Shown one piece after another: positions 26,590 to 62,819 of a stretch of 64,000 bases of DNA. Location of the stretch: contig VBDR01000039.1 of the NCBI GenBank assembly GCA_005882135.1, forward strand, positions 1 through 64,000, read 5' to 3'. Every line of letters begins with the position of its first letter. The first letter of the stretch is position 1. The DNA comes from Chloroflexota bacterium (GTDB taxonomy: Bacteria; Chloroflexota; Dormibacteria; Dormibacterales; Dormibacteraceae). The notes beneath the pieces are model-generated. The model was not told the origin of the DNA. It did not search any database and saw only the letters and a list, made by a program, of their open reading frames with translations. A program made the translations under genes and the position numbers.

Positions 26590-27528
26590 TCAGGGCGCGG
26601 CTCCGATCGCGACCTCCTCCTCAGCGAGGTCCGCGAGCGACGCCGTGGCAATCTCCTCGATGCTCTTGCCGCGATCCCGCTCGAGGACTTTCATCCGCTT
26701 GTCGAACTGGGTGCCGGCGAACTCGAGGTAGGTCTCCATGCGTTGTCCAAAAGGTGCGTGCTCATCGTCGTAGTGCTCCCAGAACTCGCTGATCACCCCC
26801 ATCGCGAGTCCCAGCAGCTCGTTCATGCGCTGGATCATGACGTCCCAGCCATCGCGTGAATCGTTGATCAGGCGGTCAAGGAGAAATACGCCATACCGGA
26901 TGTGCCGGCTTTCGTCGCGCGCGATGAGACGGATCCCGCTGAGCAGCCCAGGCAGCTTGCCGTTGGCCTCCAGCGACTGGCGGAAGCCGTGGTAGCCGGT
27001 CTCGGCGAGCACGCCTTCGATGATCATGTTGTAGGTCACCGAAGCCCGGATCTGCGCCTCCACCGACTGATCGGATTTGAGCGCGTTGAGCGAGGAGGGC
27101 AGCTCGACCAGAAAGAGTTGCCTGTAGCTGGAAGTCAGGTAGTGGCCGAGGTCTCCACGCGCGATGGCGACCTGATCGAGCCAGCGCCGGAAGAACTCGA
27201 CATGCTTGGCCTCTTCCCACAGAAATGACGTGAGGTAGATCTCCTCCTCGATCCTGCCCTCGCCGGCCACCGCCATGATCAGGGGCAAAAGATCGCTGGT
27301 GACGCCTTCCTCGCCCGCCTGGAACAACGCCAGCGTGCGAAGCAGAAAGTCCTGCTCGACGCCGTCAAATCCGGTCCAGTCCGCGCCGTCCGCAGAGAAG
27401 TCCAGTGCTTGCGGATCCCAGACGCCGAGGCGTTTAGCCTTCTGGAACAGGCGCATGGGCACCGAGTCCCAGTCGAGACCGCGGCCTGAGATGGTCGAGT
27501 AGCGATCCCGGGTCGAACCGGCGCTCAA
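26590..27528 (-). CDS. R2-like ligand-binding oxidase (R2lox)
   Basis: 312 aa ferritin-like protein of the ribonucleotide reductase R2 superfamily. Metal ligand motifs are ALFQAGEEGVTSDL (Glu), FLWEEAKHVEFFRRW (Glu-x2-His), VLAETGYHGFRQ (Glu) and IARDESRHIRYG (Glu-x2-His). With no RNR large subunit nearby and the short R2lox-like sequence, it fits the Mn/Fe oxidases typified by M. tuberculosis Rv0233, which bind a fatty-acid-like ligand and form a Tyr-Val crosslink. Physiological role unknown. TTG start with no strong ribosome site. Confidence 0.82.
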   Translation of the reverse strand: MSAGSTRDRYSTISGRGLDWDSVPMRLFQKAKRLGVWDPQALDFSADGADWTGFDGVEQDFLLRTLALFQAGEEGVTSDLLPLIMAVAGEGRIEEEIYLTSFLWEEAKHVEFFRRWLDQVAIARGDLGHYLTSSYRQLFLVELPSSLNALKSDQSVEAQIRASVTYNMIIEGVLAETGYHGFRQSLEANGKLPGLLSGIRLIARDESRHIRYGVFLLDRLINDSRDGWDVMIQRMNELLGLAMGVISEFWEHYDDEHAPFGQRMETYLEFAGTQFDKRMKVLERDRGKSIEEIATASLADLAEEEVAIGAAP

Positions 27529-51690: not shown

Positions 51691-53436
51691 ATGGCGACCA
51701 CCGACGCGCCGTCCTCTCGCGGGTTGAGCGTCCCGGGCGAGACGCCGCGCCGGCCGCCGCCCACACGCAGGACGATACGCATCCGCGGCCGGGAGTATCC
51801 CGTCTTCCTGCCCAGCCTGCGAGATCCCCGACTGCATGTCGCGGCGGTGCTGCTCACGCTCCAGGTCCTCGGCCAGACGGTGCTCGACTTCCGGCTCTCG
51901 GTGGCGCAGATACTGATCTGTCTCGCCACGGGCGCCCTGATCGAGTTCGGCGTCGGCTTCTTCAAGGACAAGGTCATCTTGTGGCCGGCGAGCGGATTGC
52001 TCACCGGCAACAGCACCGCCTTCATCCTTCGGGTCCCCGGCACTTTCCATGGCCAATGGTGGAGCACCCGGGGGATCTGGATCTTCGTCGGCGTGGTCGC
52101 GGTTTCCATGGCTTCGAAGTATCTGATCCGGTGGCGAGGAAGGCACATCTTCAACCCCTCCAACCTCGGGCTCGTGCTCGCATTCGTCGCCCTGGGGCCG
52201 GCGTACACGGAGCCGCAGGACCTGTGGTGGATCCCGATGGGGCCATGGATGATCGTGACGTACGCGATCCTGCTCGGCGGCGGGCTGCTGATCGGCTGGG
52301 AGCTGAAGCTCCTTGGCCTGGAGCTCGGCTACATGGCCGCCTTTGCGATCAGCGTCGCGATCGCCCTCGCCCCGGTACCCGACCACTGCCTGGTCGCGAG
52401 CTGGCACGCCACCGCGATCTGCGGCCGCGACCTGTGGCAGATCCTGGTCACCTCGCCTGAGGTCCTGATCTTTGCCTTCTTCATGGTCCCCGACCCGCGA
52501 ACGGTGCCCGACGGCCAGGTGGGCAGGTTCGTTTTCGGCGTCATCGTCGCTGTCCTTTCGGTGCTTCTGCTGGGCCCGACCACGCTCGAGTTCTGGACCA
52601 AGACCGCGCTCCTGGCGAGCCTTGTCTTCGCGTGCGCCGGACGGTTCGCGCTGGTGCGGCTGCTGGCGCCGCTGGAAGAAGCTGGCGGTCCATTCGCCGC
52701 CGTCCGGCGATTGGGGTGGACGGCGCCGGCGGTGTTTGGCGTCACGCTGCTCCTGATCACTGCCCTGCCCGTTTCGGCCCAGTTTTCGACCCACAGCCCA
52801 GAGCCCGCGCCCGAGCTGCCCGACGGTTCGACGCCAAAGCTGGCGCTGACACTTGGCTCGGGACCGGATGTCGCGACCTGGCTCTCAGGAAGCGCCGGCG
52901 CCGCCCTGCCACCACCCAACAATTCGGGTCCGGTCTCCGCTTCCGCCAGGGTCTGGGTGCTGCCGCCGATACCGGCCGTGAGCATCTCCACGAACGTGAT
53001 CGCTTTCGACCCGTCGATGAACGCGCCGACGGCCAAAACGTGGGCGCACGATGTCGTGCTCGACCTGGTCATCGAGTCTGAGGCGCGACGTCTACACGAC
53101 CTCAACCTTGCGGAGGGCGGCGCGGAGGGAGATGCCCTGACCGAGTTCACCGACGTCATCAAGCAGGACATCGCCGCCGGCACCGTGATTCAGAAGAGCT
53201 ACAGCTTCGACCGGGTCAGCCTGAACCTGTTCCTGCCCAAGTTCAGCACCCAGGCCCGGAGGCTGATCGGCGTGACCCTGCACGGCACGACGACACTGGT
53301 CACACGGGACGCTTCAGGAAAGGTTGTCTCGCAGCAGACGCAGCCTTACGCCAAGAGTTGGGGGGTCGGCGTCACCAAGGAGGGCACGACCTACCAGGTC
53401 ATAAGCGCCAACTTCACTGATCTGACCCTGGCCTAG
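51691..53436 (+). CDS. NQR2/RnfD-like membrane protein with extracytoplasmic C-terminal domain
   Basis: 581 aa. About ten membrane helices in residues 45-370. PASGLLTGNSTAFILRVPG and RGRHIFNPSNLGLVLAFVALG resemble the NqrB/RnfD family, including the S/T-containing flavin-attachment neighbourhood. The last 200 residues are a soluble beta domain (SISTNVIAFDPSMNAPTAKTW; YSFDRVSLNLFLPKF), not found in NqrB. No other nqr/rnf subunits are adjacent. It could be a stand-alone redox-linked membrane protein. The 3' end overlaps the selenoprotein-like gene by 23 bp. Confidence 0.72.
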   Translation: MATTDAPSSRGLSVPGETPRRPPPTRRTIRIRGREYPVFLPSLRDPRLHVAAVLLTLQVLGQTVLDFRLSVAQILICLATGALIEFGVGFFKDKVILWPASGLLTGNSTAFILRVPGTFHGQWWSTRGIWIFVGVVAVSMASKYLIRWRGRHIFNPSNLGLVLAFVALGPAYTEPQDLWWIPMGPWMIVTYAILLGGGLLIGWELKLLGLELGYMAAFAISVAIALAPVPDHCLVASWHATAICGRDLWQILVTSPEVLIFAFFMVPDPRTVPDGQVGRFVFGVIVAVLSVLLLGPTTLEFWTKTALLASLVFACAGRFALVRLLAPLEEAGGPFAAVRRLGWTAPAVFGVTLLLITALPVSAQFSTHSPEPAPELPDGSTPKLALTLGSGPDVATWLSGSAGAALPPPNNSGPVSASARVWVLPPIPAVSISTNVIAFDPSMNAPTAKTWAHDVVLDLVIESEARRLHDLNLAEGGAEGDALTEFTDVIKQDIAAGTVIQKSYSFDRVSLNLFLPKFSTQARRLIGVTLHGTTTLVTRDASGKVVSQQTQPYAKSWGVGVTKEGTTYQVISANFTDLTLA

Positions 53437-54007
53437 CGGCGGCCGGGATTCCGTCTGGCTCGTACATCGGAGGCGGCTCGATGCCGAAAGTGTCGGCGAG
53501 ACGGACGAAAAGATTGAAGAGCGCGGTGTCGTAGGCCGTTTCGGCGATCTGCTCGTCGGTCCATCCGGCCTCGCGCAGTGACTGCACCTGCTCGTCGGTG
53601 ACGCGGTACGCGTGCCTGGTGATCGTCTCCACGAACTCCATCAGCAAGCGGTGCGGTTCATCCAGGCCCGCCGCGTCCAGGTCGCCGTCGCGGAGCGCTT
53701 GCGCCACCGTCCCGTACGCCTCGCCCTGCAACTGCAGGAACCAGCTATGCGAGCTGAGTCAATAGCGGCAGCGGTTCAGAGTCGAGACGTACGAGGCGAT
53801 CATCTCGTGCTGGGCCCGGGTCAGCGCGCCATCGGTGAAGTGGAGGCGCGAGGCCTGGTCGATCGCGGCCAGGAAGTCGGGGCGCAGACTCATGGTGCGC
53901 AGGATGTCGGGCACGACCTTGGCCACGCTGCGGGCTTTGCTCCCGGCGTAGAGCTCGGCCAGCGGGCCTTTGGCCTCCGCCTCGCCGACCATCTTGATCC
54001 GCGCCAT
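53414..54007 (-). CDS. AhpD-like/carboxymuconolactone decarboxylase-fold protein, probable selenoprotein (CxxU)
   Basis: 197 residues when the in-frame TGA at 53759-53761 is read as selenocysteine. Before it: AQHEMIASYVSTLNRCRY (82 residues). After it, in the same frame: LSSHSWFLQLQGEAYGTVAQAL, then YRVTDEQVQSLREAGWTDEQIAETAYDTALFNLFVRLADTFGI. The AhpD catalytic pattern is Glu, CxxC, x3, His; here it reads Cys80-Arg-Tyr-TGA83 and His87, so the TGA sits exactly on the second cysteine. A SECIS-like hairpin follows. Such proteins are peroxide or disulfide reductases. A nonsense mutation is the alternative. It lies 32 bp behind a truncated globin gene. Confidence 0.8.
53724..53739 (-). promoter_or_regulatory. 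Candidate bacterial SECIS element
   Basis: Transcribed from the minus strand, the RNA UCCUGC-AGUU-GCAGGG forms a 6-bp stem with a 4-nt loop; G is the second loop base. The loop begins 25 nt after the UGA, inside the 16-37 nt window known for bacterial SECIS elements recognised by SelB. The loop GU resembles that of E. coli fdhF. Confidence 0.6.
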
Positions 54008-58222: not shown

Positions 58223-58292
58223 ACGGCGCGGCAGGAACGGCTGCCTGGGGAAGACCACGATTCTACCGCCCGGCTTGTTGGAGAATGAGTTG

Positions 58293-59237
58293 ATGGCAAG
58301 CTCAGGCGAGCTCGACCAGATGATCAAGTCGGGCGAGCTGATCGAGTCGACCAGCGAGATGACTCCCGAATACCTGCGGGAGCTCAAGCACACGCTCATC
58401 GTGTCCGGCGACACCGAGCTCATCTCGGCCCCGGCCTACTACCTGGCCGCCAAAAGGGCGCCGTCGATCAACGCTTTCATGACCGGGATCGCGATCATCC
58501 AGGACGAGCTCGCCCACGCTCACATCGCTTACCACATCCTCGAAGAGCTCGGCGAGGACCAGGAAAAGCTCATCTTCAGTCGCGACCCCAAGAGCTTTCG
58601 CTACCCCTACGCATTCGACGTCCCCCTCGAGAGCTGGACCGAGCTAGTCGTCGCCAACGGCTTTTACGACCAGGCCGGCTTCTGCCTCCTCGGCGACATC
58701 CACGACAAGTGCTCGTACGGCCCCTGGAAGCGCGGCCTCAACAAGGTGATGCTGGAGGAGAACTTCCACCTTCGCAACGGTCGCACCTGGATGAAGCGCA
58801 TCAGCGCTTCGGGAGGTGCGACCAAGGACGAGCTGCAGCGTGCCGTCGACTGGATGTTTCCGCTCAGCGTCGAGTGGTTCGGGCTGCCCGACTCGAAGAA
58901 AATGCATTCGACCCAGCTCGAGTACAGGCTCAAGGGCCTGACCAACGACCAGCTGCGCCAGTGGTGGCTGTCGACAGTCGTGCCGTACTGCGAGCAGATC
59001 GGCGTCAAGGTCCCTGCGCACCAGGAGACGCGCGACGGCAAGGACGTCTGGGAGCTCGACTACCCGTTCCCGTGCGAGTTCGACGCGGAGGCAAAGCGCT
59101 GGGACTTCAAGCAGCCCATCACATGGGACGGCGTGCTGGCCCGCTGGCGCGAGCGAGGGCCTCGCAACGCCGAGATGGTCGCGATGTTCCAGGAAGAGTT
59201 CCACAACTTCCGAAAGACGCACCGCGGGGATTCATGA
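58293..59237 (+). CDS. paaA: 1,2-phenylacetyl-CoA epoxidase, subunit PaaA
   Basis: 314 aa, catalytic ferritin-like subunit. Diiron ligands lie in IIQDELAHAHIAYHI (Glu-x2-His) and VMLEENFHLRNGRTW (Glu-x2-His). FDVPLESWTELVVANGFYDQAGFCLLGD is highly characteristic of PaaA. It epoxidises the aromatic ring of phenylacetyl-CoA with O2. ATG 58293 has GGAG 9 nt upstream. First gene of the paa operon, just after tRNA-His. Confidence 0.95.
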   Translation: MASSGELDQMIKSGELIESTSEMTPEYLRELKHTLIVSGDTELISAPAYYLAAKRAPSINAFMTGIAIIQDELAHAHIAYHILEELGEDQEKLIFSRDPKSFRYPYAFDVPLESWTELVVANGFYDQAGFCLLGDIHDKCSYGPWKRGLNKVMLEENFHLRNGRTWMKRISASGGATKDELQRAVDWMFPLSVEWFGLPDSKKMHSTQLEYRLKGLTNDQLRQWWLSTVVPYCEQIGVKVPAHQETRDGKDVWELDYPFPCEFDAEAKRWDFKQPITWDGVLARWRERGPRNAEMVAMFQEEFHNFRKTHRGDS

Positions 59238-59806: not shown

Positions 59807-60538
59807 GTGAGCCTTTCCGACCTCGTTCTCAGCCTCGCGGACAACAAGCAGATGCTGGGACTGCGTTACGCAGAATGGGCGACCCGCGCTCCTTCGCTCG
59901 AGGCGGATATCGCGGCGGCCGCTATGGGTCTCGACGACCTCGGCCACAGCCGCGTCCTGTACGGATGTCTCGAGCCGCTCGGCGTGGACCCGCGGGGCCC
60001 CGAACGCGAGTCGGATCCGGCCAGCCTGCGCAACCTTGCCTACTTCGACGATCCATGGACCGAGTGGTCGCAGTTCGTGGCCGCCAACGCAATCCTCGAC
60101 ACGGCGTTCACCGTGATGATCGAGGCGTGCGTCGGCGGATCAGTCGACGTGCTGCAGCAGCGGCTGCGGAAGATGCTGCTGGAGGAGCGCTACCACTTCC
60201 TGCACGGTCGCAGCTGGCTGCGGTCGGGCATCGACACCGAACCGCTGCAGCGCGCGTGGCGCGAGGCGATCGAGTGGTTCGGGCCACCGGACGGTGAGTC
60301 CGCCAAGCTGCATCGCGAAGGCAAGCTGAGCCTGGGCCCGGCCGAGCTGCGTGCGCGCCTCGAAGAGCGGCTCGAGATGAAAGCGCCGCCCGTCACCAGC
60401 GATTGGAAGGGCTGGGACCCCATCCGCCGCCGCGCCCGCCCAGGCTCGATCGATGCGCACACGTTCGGCATGCTGCGTGGTCTCGAGGAGAAGAAATATG
60501 CGCCGCCCACCGCGAAACAAGCAGCCCCACGCGCCTAG
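59807..60538 (+). CDS. paaC: 1,2-phenylacetyl-CoA epoxidase, subunit PaaC
   Basis: 243 aa. Ferritin-like partner of PaaA: LADNKQMLGLRYAEWATRAPSLEADIAAAAMGLDDLGHSRVLYG and MLLEERYHFLHGRSWL. Ligand positions are partly degenerate, as expected of the structural subunit. GTG start, with GGGGAGG from the adjoining repeat upstream. The gene overlaps the zinc-ribbon gene by 41 bp. Confidence 0.93.
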   Translation: MSLSDLVLSLADNKQMLGLRYAEWATRAPSLEADIAAAAMGLDDLGHSRVLYGCLEPLGVDPRGPERESDPASLRNLAYFDDPWTEWSQFVAANAILDTAFTVMIEACVGGSVDVLQQRLRKMLLEERYHFLHGRSWLRSGIDTEPLQRAWREAIEWFGPPDGESAKLHREGKLSLGPAELRARLEERLEMKAPPVTSDWKGWDPIRRRARPGSIDAHTFGMLRGLEEKKYAPPTAKQAAPRA

Positions 60539-61429: not shown

Positions 61430-61986
61430 AGCGCGAGGTCGGCGACCACGTGGCCGACGATCGGCGCCACCAGGTCCTTGCAAGCCCATCGCCACAACGC
61501 AAGCAGCAAGCCCGCGGCAGCCACGGCGCCCAGGAACTCGGGCGGGTGCGAGAGCGCGTGAGCGACCGTCCAGATCAGGGTGCTGCCGGCGACGGCGACC
61601 GGCGCCCCCCCCAGCTCATCGAGGGCCGCATAGAGGGCTCCGCGGAAGGCAAGCTCCTCTCCGACTGATACCGCGATGGCCGCGGCGGCCAGCCCAGCCG
61701 GCAGCAGGGGCACGGCGCCGCTCCGCGCGGCCGCGGGCAGGAGGAGCACGGCGCCGAGGGCGAGACCGCCGATGACGCGCAGCGCCAAATGCGATTTGCC
61801 CAGCCCCAACCCGTTCGCGGGCCAGCCAAGCGCTACCACCGCCAGGGCGGCGCCGCCGAGCAGCAGGGCTGCGACCGTGAAATGGGAATCTTGGGCGAGG
61901 AGGACCCGCGTCCATTCGACGAGGAGGATGTAGGAGGCGACCAGTCCGGCGCGGAGTGCCGACCGGCTTCTGACCGCCGAAATCAA
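61426..61986 (-). CDS. CPBP-family intramembrane protease
   Basis: 186 aa with about five hydrophobic segments. The motif VSVGEELAFRGALYAAL contains the EExxxR signature, and TLIWTVAHALSHPPEF and VGHVVADL provide the conserved His residues. CPBP (CAAX-prenyl-protease-like) enzymes cleave within the membrane, and some give self-immunity to bacteriocins. TTG start overlaps the fdhD stop as TTGA, so it is the second gene of the fdhD cluster. Confidence 0.87.
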   Translation of the reverse strand: MISAVRSRSALRAGLVASYILLVEWTRVLLAQDSHFTVAALLLGGAALAVVALGWPANGLGLGKSHLALRVIGGLALGAVLLLPAAARSGAVPLLPAGLAAAAIAVSVGEELAFRGALYAALDELGGAPVAVAGSTLIWTVAHALSHPPEFLGAVAAAGLLLALWRWACKDLVAPIVGHVVADLAL

Positions 61987-62819
61987 CTAGCCAGCCGTTC
62001 GGGCGCCGCGTAGACGTTGAAGCGCTCACCACGAAGGAATCCGACCAGCGTCTGGTTGAACTCGCGTGACAGCGCGACGGCCAGGCTCGACGGGGCGCCG
62101 ACCGCGGCCAGCAGGGGCATCCCGGCCGTGATCGATTTCTGGACGATCTCGTAACCGGCGCGCCCGCTCACGACCAGGATCGCGTCCCGCGCCGGAAGCC
62201 GGCCGTCCAGCAGCATCCGCCCGACCACCTTGTCGACCGCGTTGTGCCGGCCGATGTCCTCGCGCATGCAGATGAGATCGCCGCCGGAGCTGAACAGCCC
62301 GGCGGCATGGAGGCCCCCGGTACGCTCGAAGACGCCCTGGCCAGAGCGCAACCGTTCCACCAGCGGCGGCAGCAGGGCGGGATCGATGGTCGGGCCGGCG
62401 GGAAGTTGGGCGAGGTCGCGCCGGAGGTCCTCGATCAGGACCGCGCCGCACACGCCGCAGGCGGAGCTGGAGAGCATCGACCGTTCGGGCCTGCGGCGAG
62501 GCGCCACCGCGAGCTGGACGTCGATTTGATTCGACTCGACCAGGGAGGAATCGACCGAGATTCCGGACGCGGTCTCGCCAGACTCGGCGCTGATGCGAAC
62601 GTGCCCGATGGCGTCGAGCGAACGGACGATGCCCTCGGCGAACATCAGGCCGAGGGCGAGCTCGATGTCTTCACCTGGCGTGCGCATGACGACAGACAGG
62701 GGGACGCCGTCGAGCATCAACTGCAGCGGCTCTTCTGTGACGACGGCGTCGGGGACTTCACTCCATGCACCAGACGACCATTTGCGGACGCGTACGCCGG
62801 GCGCGGGCGGTTTCGCCAT
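61983..62819 (-). CDS. fdhD: Formate dehydrogenase accessory sulfurtransferase FdhD
   Basis: 278 aa. MLSSSACGVCGAVLIEDL holds the CxxC pair that transfers sulfur. TPGEDIELALGLMFAEGIV, GLHAAGLFSS, CMREDIGRHNAVDKVVG and ILVVSGRAGYEIVQKSITAGMPLLAAVGAPSSLAVALS are family blocks. FdhD sulfurates the molybdenum cofactor of formate dehydrogenase, so the organism should have one elsewhere. Starts directly after the upstream PPOX-like gene. Confidence 0.94.
   Translation of the reverse strand: MAKPPAPGVRVRKWSSGAWSEVPDAVVTEEPLQLMLDGVPLSVVMRTPGEDIELALGLMFAEGIVRSLDAIGHVRISAESGETASGISVDSSLVESNQIDVQLAVAPRRRPERSMLSSSACGVCGAVLIEDLRRDLAQLPAGPTIDPALLPPLVERLRSGQGVFERTGGLHAAGLFSSGGDLICMREDIGRHNAVDKVVGRMLLDGRLPARDAILVVSGRAGYEIVQKSITAGMPLLAAVGAPSSLAVALSREFNQTLVGFLRGERFNVYAAPERLAS

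What the first reader, a model, noticed from the sequence alone, without database searches (positions are those of the whole stretch)
53414..54007. AhpD-like gene with an in-frame TGA at the second Cys of CxxC: likely selenoprotein
The frame before and after the TGA (53759-53761) is one continuous AhpD/CMD-fold protein: CRY-TGA-LSSH aligns with the family motif CxxC-x3-H. The stop falls on the redox-active cysteine, where selenocysteine has been reported in some AhpD-like bacterial proteins (CxxU). A hairpin UCCUGC-AGUU-GCAGGG has its loop 25 nt after the UGA, with G second in the loop, as bacterial SECIS elements require. The upstream gene is a truncated globin, so this may be a peroxide/NO-handling unit with a selenol. 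The AhpD-like CxxU class is known; its pairing with a globin looks new to me. fdhD in the same window is consistent with a formate dehydrogenase, often itself a Sec protein.
Basis: partly seen in the sequence, partly recalled or inferred. Interest (0 to 1): 0.93.

Follow-up and report, generated by a model that had tools for sequence, protein, structure and literature searches.

The report
Selenocysteine AhpD-like enzyme beside a globin
An uncultured bacterium very probably reads a UGA codon in the middle of an antioxidant-type enzyme gene as selenocysteine, the selenium amino acid, exactly at the enzyme's reactive site; the enzyme family is already known to have such members, so this is a new example of a known kind, with a globin gene as an interesting neighbour.

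Summary
On the minus strand, 54007-53414 encodes one TIGR01926 (AhpD-like) protein of 197 residues with an in-frame TGA (53761-53759) at the second position of CxxC (C80-R-Y-U83-LSS-H87). The window's genome has selA, selB, tRNA-Sec and an FdhA-like gene with TGA at its Sec site; selD is missing from this 85%-complete bin, but 34 of 39 genomes that carry the gene (this one counted) have it. In 48 of 48 distinct close homologues the codon is TGA; in a wider set of 70 loci the column is TGA (51) or TGC/TGT (19), nothing else. The hairpin CCUGC-AGUU-GCAGG meets the four published bacterial SECIS criteria and is under strong synonymous constraint, though its folding energy is ordinary. The upstream globin is adjacent in 19 of 44 testable loci and 0.4-2.6 kb away in 4 more, all in one family; 21 lack it. 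AhpD-like CxxU selenoproteins of exactly this model (TIGR01926) are listed in a 2026 review: new member of a known kind. Sec in the protein, peroxide reduction and any joint work with the globin are inferred, not shown.

The parts
53414..54007 (-). AhpD-like selenoprotein gene (TIGR01926 peroxidase-related, 197 aa read with Sec83; stop TGA at 53416-53414)
53759..53761 (-). in-frame TGA, read as selenocysteine 83
   Evidence: TGA in 48 of 48 distinct close homologues; TGA or Cys codon in 70 of 70 wider loci
53768..53770 (-). codon of Cys80, the presumed resolving cysteine of CxxU
   Evidence: invariant in 24 of 24 aligned rows and 70 of 70 wider loci
53747..53749 (-). codon of His87, presumed proton-relay histidine
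   Evidence: invariant in 24 of 24 rows and 70 of 70; role recalled from M. tuberculosis AhpD
53804..53806 (-). codon of Glu68, presumed proton-relay glutamate
   Evidence: invariant in 24 of 24 rows; 69 of 70 in the wider set, Asp in L142; role recalled
53724..53739 (-). bacterial SECIS hairpin (U)CCUGC-AGUU-GCAGG(G), loop G at 53732
   Evidence: model in PMC13188914
54040..54492 (-). truncated globin gene, 32 nt upstream, same strand; presumed operon partner
   Evidence: PF01152; conserved neighbour in 23 of 44 loci; presumed proximal His77 in 23 of 23
61983..62819 (-). fdhD, accessory gene that fits the FdhA-like gene found elsewhere in the genome
   Evidence: TIGR00129 175.6 bits, over its cut-off of 140.9

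Best explanation
The gene encodes a selenocysteine-containing AhpD-like (TIGR01926) oxidoreductase. The hairpin that begins about 20 nt after the UGA acts as a bacterial SECIS: SelB with Sec-tRNA(Sec) binds it and decodes UGA83 as Sec, so translation continues to residue 197. Sec83 takes the place of the peroxidatic cysteine of the AhpD CxxC centre, with Cys80 as resolving residue and Glu68/His87 as proton relay; it most likely reduces a peroxide (organic peroxide or peroxynitrite) and is re-reduced by a thiol or dithiol donor. In one family of this lineage it lies directly behind a truncated globin gene, presumably co-transcribed, which suggests use under nitric-oxide or oxygen-linked stress. 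Shown by sequence: the open frame, the conserved TGA, its alternation with Cys only, the hairpin constraint, the Sec machinery, the (predicted) fold and the globin neighbour. Inferred: insertion of Sec in the cell, the roles of the residues, the substrate, co-transcription and joint function. The confidence below is for a Sec-containing AhpD-like enzyme; the peroxide part I put at about 0.6.
For: Sec machinery in the same genome and an FdhA-like gene with TGA in its usual Sec motif. 39 of 121 genomes searched (own counted) have a close copy (E below 1e-50), 39 of 39 with a TGA inside the match. 48 of 48 distinct close loci have TGA at the site. In 70 wider loci (22 of them of the close clade, the window's own included) the column is TGA 51, TGC/TGT 19. 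Leu +10 is TTG in 48 of 48 rows although TTG is 84 of 874 Leu codons elsewhere in these genes. Six loci (four distinct rows) have TTG and CAA in place of CTG and CAG, keeping the pair. Synonymous difference is 0.24 in the hairpin codons against 0.58-0.62 in stretches outside it. Carriers have selB in 33 of 39 genomes, non-carriers in 31 of 82 (Fisher p 1.6e-6; related genomes are not independent). AlphaFold2 model pLDDT 92.6; best PDB matches 6k40 and 2prr, TM 0.79-0.84.
Against: selD is not found over its cut-off in this bin; 5 of 39 carriers lack it at E 1e-20 and 6 of 39 lack selB at E 1e-80, which I put down to incomplete bins but did not prove. The hairpin's folding energy is not unusual for the composition (z -1.58 and +0.55). 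Only one of six stem pairs shows a two-sided change, and 153 of 500 shuffles have as many such pairs, though 0 of 500 have as many such cells. Two of the 51 TGA loci of the wider set (L126, L130) also have a TAG inside the match, not examined. No activity, transcript or protein was measured. The M. tuberculosis AhpD structures match the model only weakly (TM about 0.5), so the mechanism is carried over from a distant relative and is recalled.
Confidence: 0.93

Rival explanations
1. The TGA is a sequencing error or the gene is decayed (pseudogene), and only the first 82 residues are made.
For: A plain ORF caller splits the gene in two; one relative (L085) does have a frameshift further downstream.
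Against: TGA at the same codon in 48 of 48 distinct loci from many assemblies and several phyla; the part after the TGA is under purifying selection (pN/pS 0.27-0.55 by stretch, against 0.39 before it) and carries the family's C-terminal half.
Confidence: 0.02
2. The organism reads TGA as another amino acid (for example Trp or Gly) throughout.
For: Such codes exist in some bacteria (recalled).
Against: The column is Cys in the 19 of 70 loci that lack TGA; the gene and many homologues end in TGA; selA, selB and tRNA-Sec are present; the FdhA-like stretch has TGA only at its Sec site.
Confidence: 0.01
3. It is a selenoprotein, but not a peroxidase: a thiol-disulfide oxidoreductase, or a reductase of another substrate such as a halogenated or nitrosated compound. 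(Rival of the function only.)
For: The AhpD fold serves several chemistries; Foldseek also ranks the debrominase Bmp8 (6ohj, TM 0.70). The family name says only 'peroxidase-related'. The conserved neighbour seen in this lineage is a globin; no search for ahpC was made.
Against: The closest structures are named alkyl hydroperoxide reductase or peroxidase-related, and CxxU plus Glu and His match the AhpD centre.
Confidence: 0.35

Closest known systems
AhpD-like selenoproteins, CxxU, TIGR01926 / COG2128
   Same: Same family model (88.3 bits, over cut-off) and same Sec position in CxxU. One accession (MCB9421940.1) stands under TIGR01926 in the 2026 review PMC13188914 and under COG2128 in the 2022 review PMC9312934 (passages). 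COG2128 CxxU genes: 299 in the GOS survey PMC2398784, 27 in the Sargasso survey PMC1088965 (passages).
   Different: The window's clade is mainly Dormibacterota/Chloroflexota-type genomes, has its own near-invariant SECIS and, in one family, a globin neighbour. I did not compare it residue by residue with the accession of the reviews.
NF041238 alkylhydroperoxidase-related (seleno)protein
   Same: AhpD-related with CxxU (the reviews list it as a selenoprotein); partial match 70.7 bits.
   Different: Below its cut-off of 175 bits; the model is 357 positions long and only 152-334 are matched.
Deinococcus radiodurans AhpD-like reductase (PDB 6k40) and Ralstonia 2prr
   Same: Among the best sequence and fold matches, TM 0.79-0.84, 27-29% identity.
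   Different: Cys where this protein has Sec (alignments).
Mycobacterium tuberculosis AhpD (PDB 1knc)
   Same: Same active-site plan Glu - CxxC - x3 - His (recalled for that enzyme; present here).
   Different: Weak structural match (TM about 0.5); Cys enzyme that works with AhpC (recalled).

Membership tests
Bacterial selenoprotein | in-frame UGA aligned with a redox Cys of homologues | tested here: met
   TGA 51, TGC/TGT 19 of 70 loci; 48 of 48 close loci TGA
Bacterial selenoprotein | bSECIS after the UGA (3-9 nt loop, 4-16 bp stem, G in first two loop positions, 16-37 nt spacing, MFE at most -7.5) | tested here: met
   loop 4, stem 5-6, G second, spacing 25, -8.6 kcal/mol
Bacterial selenoprotein | selA, selB, selC in the genome | tested here: met
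Bacterial selenoprotein | selD in the genome | tested here: inconclusive
   not over cut-off in this 85% complete bin; match at E 1e-20 or better in 34 of 39 carriers, 33 over the cut-off
Bacterial selenoprotein | Sec found in the protein | not testable with these tools
   needs mass spectrometry or 75Se labelling
TIGR01926 peroxidase-related / AhpD-like | score over curated cut-off | tested here: met
   88.3 bits against 81.8, with Cys in place of Sec
TIGR01926 peroxidase-related / AhpD-like | AhpD fold | tested here: met
   predicted model pLDDT 92.6, TM 0.79-0.84 to 6k40 and 2prr
AhpD alkylhydroperoxidase (function) | Glu, CxxC/U and His of the proton relay (recalled) | tested here: met
   E68, C80, residue 83 and H87 invariant in 24 rows
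AhpD alkylhydroperoxidase (function) | peroxidase activity; partner AhpC | not tested
   no assay; no ahpC search was made
NF041238 AhpD-related (seleno)protein | score over curated cut-off | tested here: not met
   70.7 bits against 175

The most novel reading that the evidence does not exclude
The truncated globin and the Sec-AhpD form a dedicated two-gene redox unit of one Dormibacterota-type family: the globin binds O2 or NO and the selenol reduces the resulting oxidant (for example peroxynitrite) or the globin itself. The clade shows Sec with no Cys replacement among the loci read, which suggests that the selenol is needed.
Probability: 0.25. Interest if true: 0.55.

Novelty: new member of a known kind. 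Interest (0 to 1): 0.36.

Why it matters
A plain ORF caller cuts this gene in two, so such enzymes are easily missed. The set gathered here (an all-Sec clade with a near-invariant SECIS, next to Sec and Cys clades of the same family) is a clean natural case for testing why selenium is kept at this site. The globin neighbour is a testable lead on the unknown substrate of TIGR01926 proteins.

Tried and rejected
Sequencing error, pseudogene and reassigned code: rejected (see rivals). A thermodynamic signal for the hairpin: not found; shuffles fold about as well, so the SECIS rests on conservation and fit to the model. A general AhpD-globin system: rejected; in 19 of 19 testable loci from outside the window's family no homologue of this globin was found in the stretch held (at most about 4 kb each side; phmmer E 1e-4), and 2 testable loci of its own genus (L050, L052) lack it too. 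A protein search of plasmids gave only distant matches (137 records, 137 under 60% identity). Papers: searches for AhpD+selenoprotein, two of truncated hemoglobin/alkylhydroperoxidase/selenocysteine, Dormibacter+selenoprotein (0 papers), two of AhpD/CxxU/peroxidase-related, selenoprotein+Chloroflexi+selenocysteine+metagenome-assembled (3 papers) and truncated hemoglobin+AhpD+operon (3 papers, by their titles and abstract starts on M. tuberculosis or tuberculosis, not opened). In these listings I saw no description of the globin pairing; only open-licence papers are held. I read passages of four papers, none whole.

Rows dropped before counts: identical copies between the unnamed and the named genome sets; L085 (frameshift) is in the 48 but left out of the 48 rows, where the window takes its place, and is counted for the globin; four rows (L084, L086-L088) left out of one stretch; 5 of 49 loci with under 400 nt upstream left out of the globin count (L042, L053, L055, L074, L080). 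In the wider set I read 70 loci: the 30 that one search returned and 40 of its further listed matches that I chose; the rest were not read. Of two genomes of the same family whose copies were not in the globin count (G025, G034), G025 has a globin 1.7 kb downstream on the same contig.

Full report
What is there. The gene lies on the minus strand, 54007 to 53414 (the finding does not give the strand). Read with TGA as U it is a single 197-residue protein, MARIKMV...NRCRYULSSHSWFLQLQG..., with the TGA codon at 53761-53759 as residue 83. It scores above the cut-off of TIGR01926, 'peroxidase-related enzyme', over residues 3-179, and matches PF02627. A plain ORF caller splits it into 82 and 105 aa. 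Codon-position GC is alike before and after the TGA.

Can the genome make selenocysteine? The window lies in a 2.71-Mb bin, 85% complete. It has adjacent selA (506 bits) and selB (350 bits) on contig C6 and tRNA-Sec on C35 (72.5 bits, gathering score 47) (the selAB region is seen). selD was not found over the cut-off (best 38.3 bits of 125). Of the 121 genomes searched, 39 (own counted) carry a close copy of the gene. Of these 39, 34 match selD at E 1e-20 or better (33 over the family cut-off), 30 of the 34 with a TGA inside the match, and 33 match selB at E 1e-80 or better. Of the 82 genomes without the gene 31 have selB (Fisher p 1.6e-6; related genomes are not independent). An FdhA-like gene of the genome (630.5 bits, below the cut-off of 666.25, matched from position 53) has a TGA in CNRT-U-HAPSV, which agrees with fdhD in the window.

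Homologues. A scan of named genomes gave 41 loci: records titled Dormibacterota, Chloroflexi or Chloroflexota, Anaerolineae, Ktedonobacterales and Thermomicrobiales, one each titled Acidobacteria and Proteobacteria, and three Planctomycetota. None of its search patterns spans the TGA. One of them, L085, has a frameshift later; without it and with the window the codon table holds 48 rows. A search of 400 genomes of the phylum with the profile found matches at E 1e-15 in 107. In the 70 loci I read from it (30 returned, 40 chosen by me; 22 belong to the close clade, the window's own included), the column is TGA in 51 and TGC or TGT in 19, never anything else; so outside the close clade it is 29 TGA and 19 Cys of 48. 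Cys80 and His87 are kept in 70 of 70 and Glu68 in 69. Two TGA loci, L126 and L130, also show a TAG within the match, which I did not examine. A tree of 77 rows (58 Sec, 19 Cys) needs 6 changes between the two states, 3 of them forced by well-supported branches; the 29 rows of the window's clade with its Planctomycetota sisters are all Sec. Several long branches make the deep order unsure.

The SECIS. The 14 nt CCUGC-AGUU-GCAGG are nearly the same in all 48 rows. The reviewed bSECIS model asks for a 3-9 nt loop, 4-16 bp stem, G in the first two loop positions, 16-37 nt from the UGA and at most -7.5 kcal/mol (PMC13188914, passage); here 4, 5-6, second, 25 and -8.6. Leu +10 is TTG in 48 of 48, against 84 of 874 Leu codons elsewhere in the same genes. 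Six loci, four distinct rows, hold U-A in place of a C-G pair through two synonymous changes (CTG to TTG, CAG to CAA). Pairwise synonymous difference is 0.24 in codons +7 to +12 against 0.58-0.62 in the stretches outside. Against this: energy z-scores are ordinary, only one of six pairs has a two-sided change, and the number of such pairs is reached by 153 of 500 shuffles, although the number of such cells and the covariation score are reached by 0 of 500. TGA homologues from other clades carry other sequences after the TGA, so the near-invariance is a feature of this clade.

Fold and active site. The AlphaFold2 model (alignment of 24 rows, Cys for Sec) has pLDDT 92.6 and matches 6k40 and 2prr at TM 0.79-0.84. 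Glu68, Cys80, residue 83 and His87 are invariant in the 24 rows. In M. tuberculosis AhpD the second Cys is the one that attacks the peroxide and the first resolves it, with Glu and His relaying protons (recalled, not looked up). Sec would thus sit at the peroxidatic place. The substrate is inferred.

The globin. The gene upstream, 54492-54040, is a truncated globin whose best solved relative by sequence is 5d1v (40 bits). Of 49 loci (window, 41 named, 7 unnamed), 44 have at least 400 nt upstream. In 19 of 44 a homologous globin ends within 70 nt of the ahpD start (three overlap it by 1-4 nt) on the same strand, in 4 more it ends 0.4-2.6 kb upstream, and in 21 it was not found in the stretch held. 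The presumed proximal His77 is kept in 23 of 23 (its role is read from alignment with known truncated globins). Many genomes of this family have further globins elsewhere.

Known or new. AhpD-like CxxU selenoproteins were reported from the Sargasso Sea (27 genes) and the GOS survey (299 genes of AhpD-like 1) and are listed under TIGR01926 in the 2026 review (passages). The window gene is therefore a new member of a known kind. I saw no description of the globin pairing in the searches named under Tried and rejected; these cover open-licence papers only. Interest is moderate: a correct and well-supported reading of a known class, with one new lead.

Noticed in passing
G000:C78:61688-63547 (L098): FdhA-like gene (630.5 bits, below the cut-off of 666.25) with one in-frame TGA in CNRT-U-HAPSV: a likely second selenoprotein gene; the first 51 model positions match a separate place 2.5 kb further downstream (C78:66081), unexplained.
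   Followed up: partly
G000:C75:159567-160337 (L099): A second, weaker Fdh-alpha-like match (183 bits) with one TGA inside the matched stretch; not examined.
   Followed up: no
relatives of the window genome (table; L092-L097): selD has a TGA inside the match in many relatives, while in other families of the class (f4, most of f2) it has none.
   Followed up: no
window 51691-53436 (+): Convergent membrane-type gene with weak similarity to NQR2/RnfD/RnfE (22.1 bits, below the cut-off of 27.7) whose 3' end overlaps that of the ahpD gene by 23 nt; a similar gene stands there in L050 and L052.
   Followed up: partly
window 58275-59237 and 59807-60538 (+): Two genes related to PaaA and PaaC of phenylacetyl-CoA epoxidase, both well below the curated cut-offs (113.6 of 280 and 75.4 of 133 bits): diverged relatives.
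   Followed up: no
window 26590-27528 (-): R2-like ligand-binding oxidase (346.6 bits, over the cut-off of 315).
   Followed up: no
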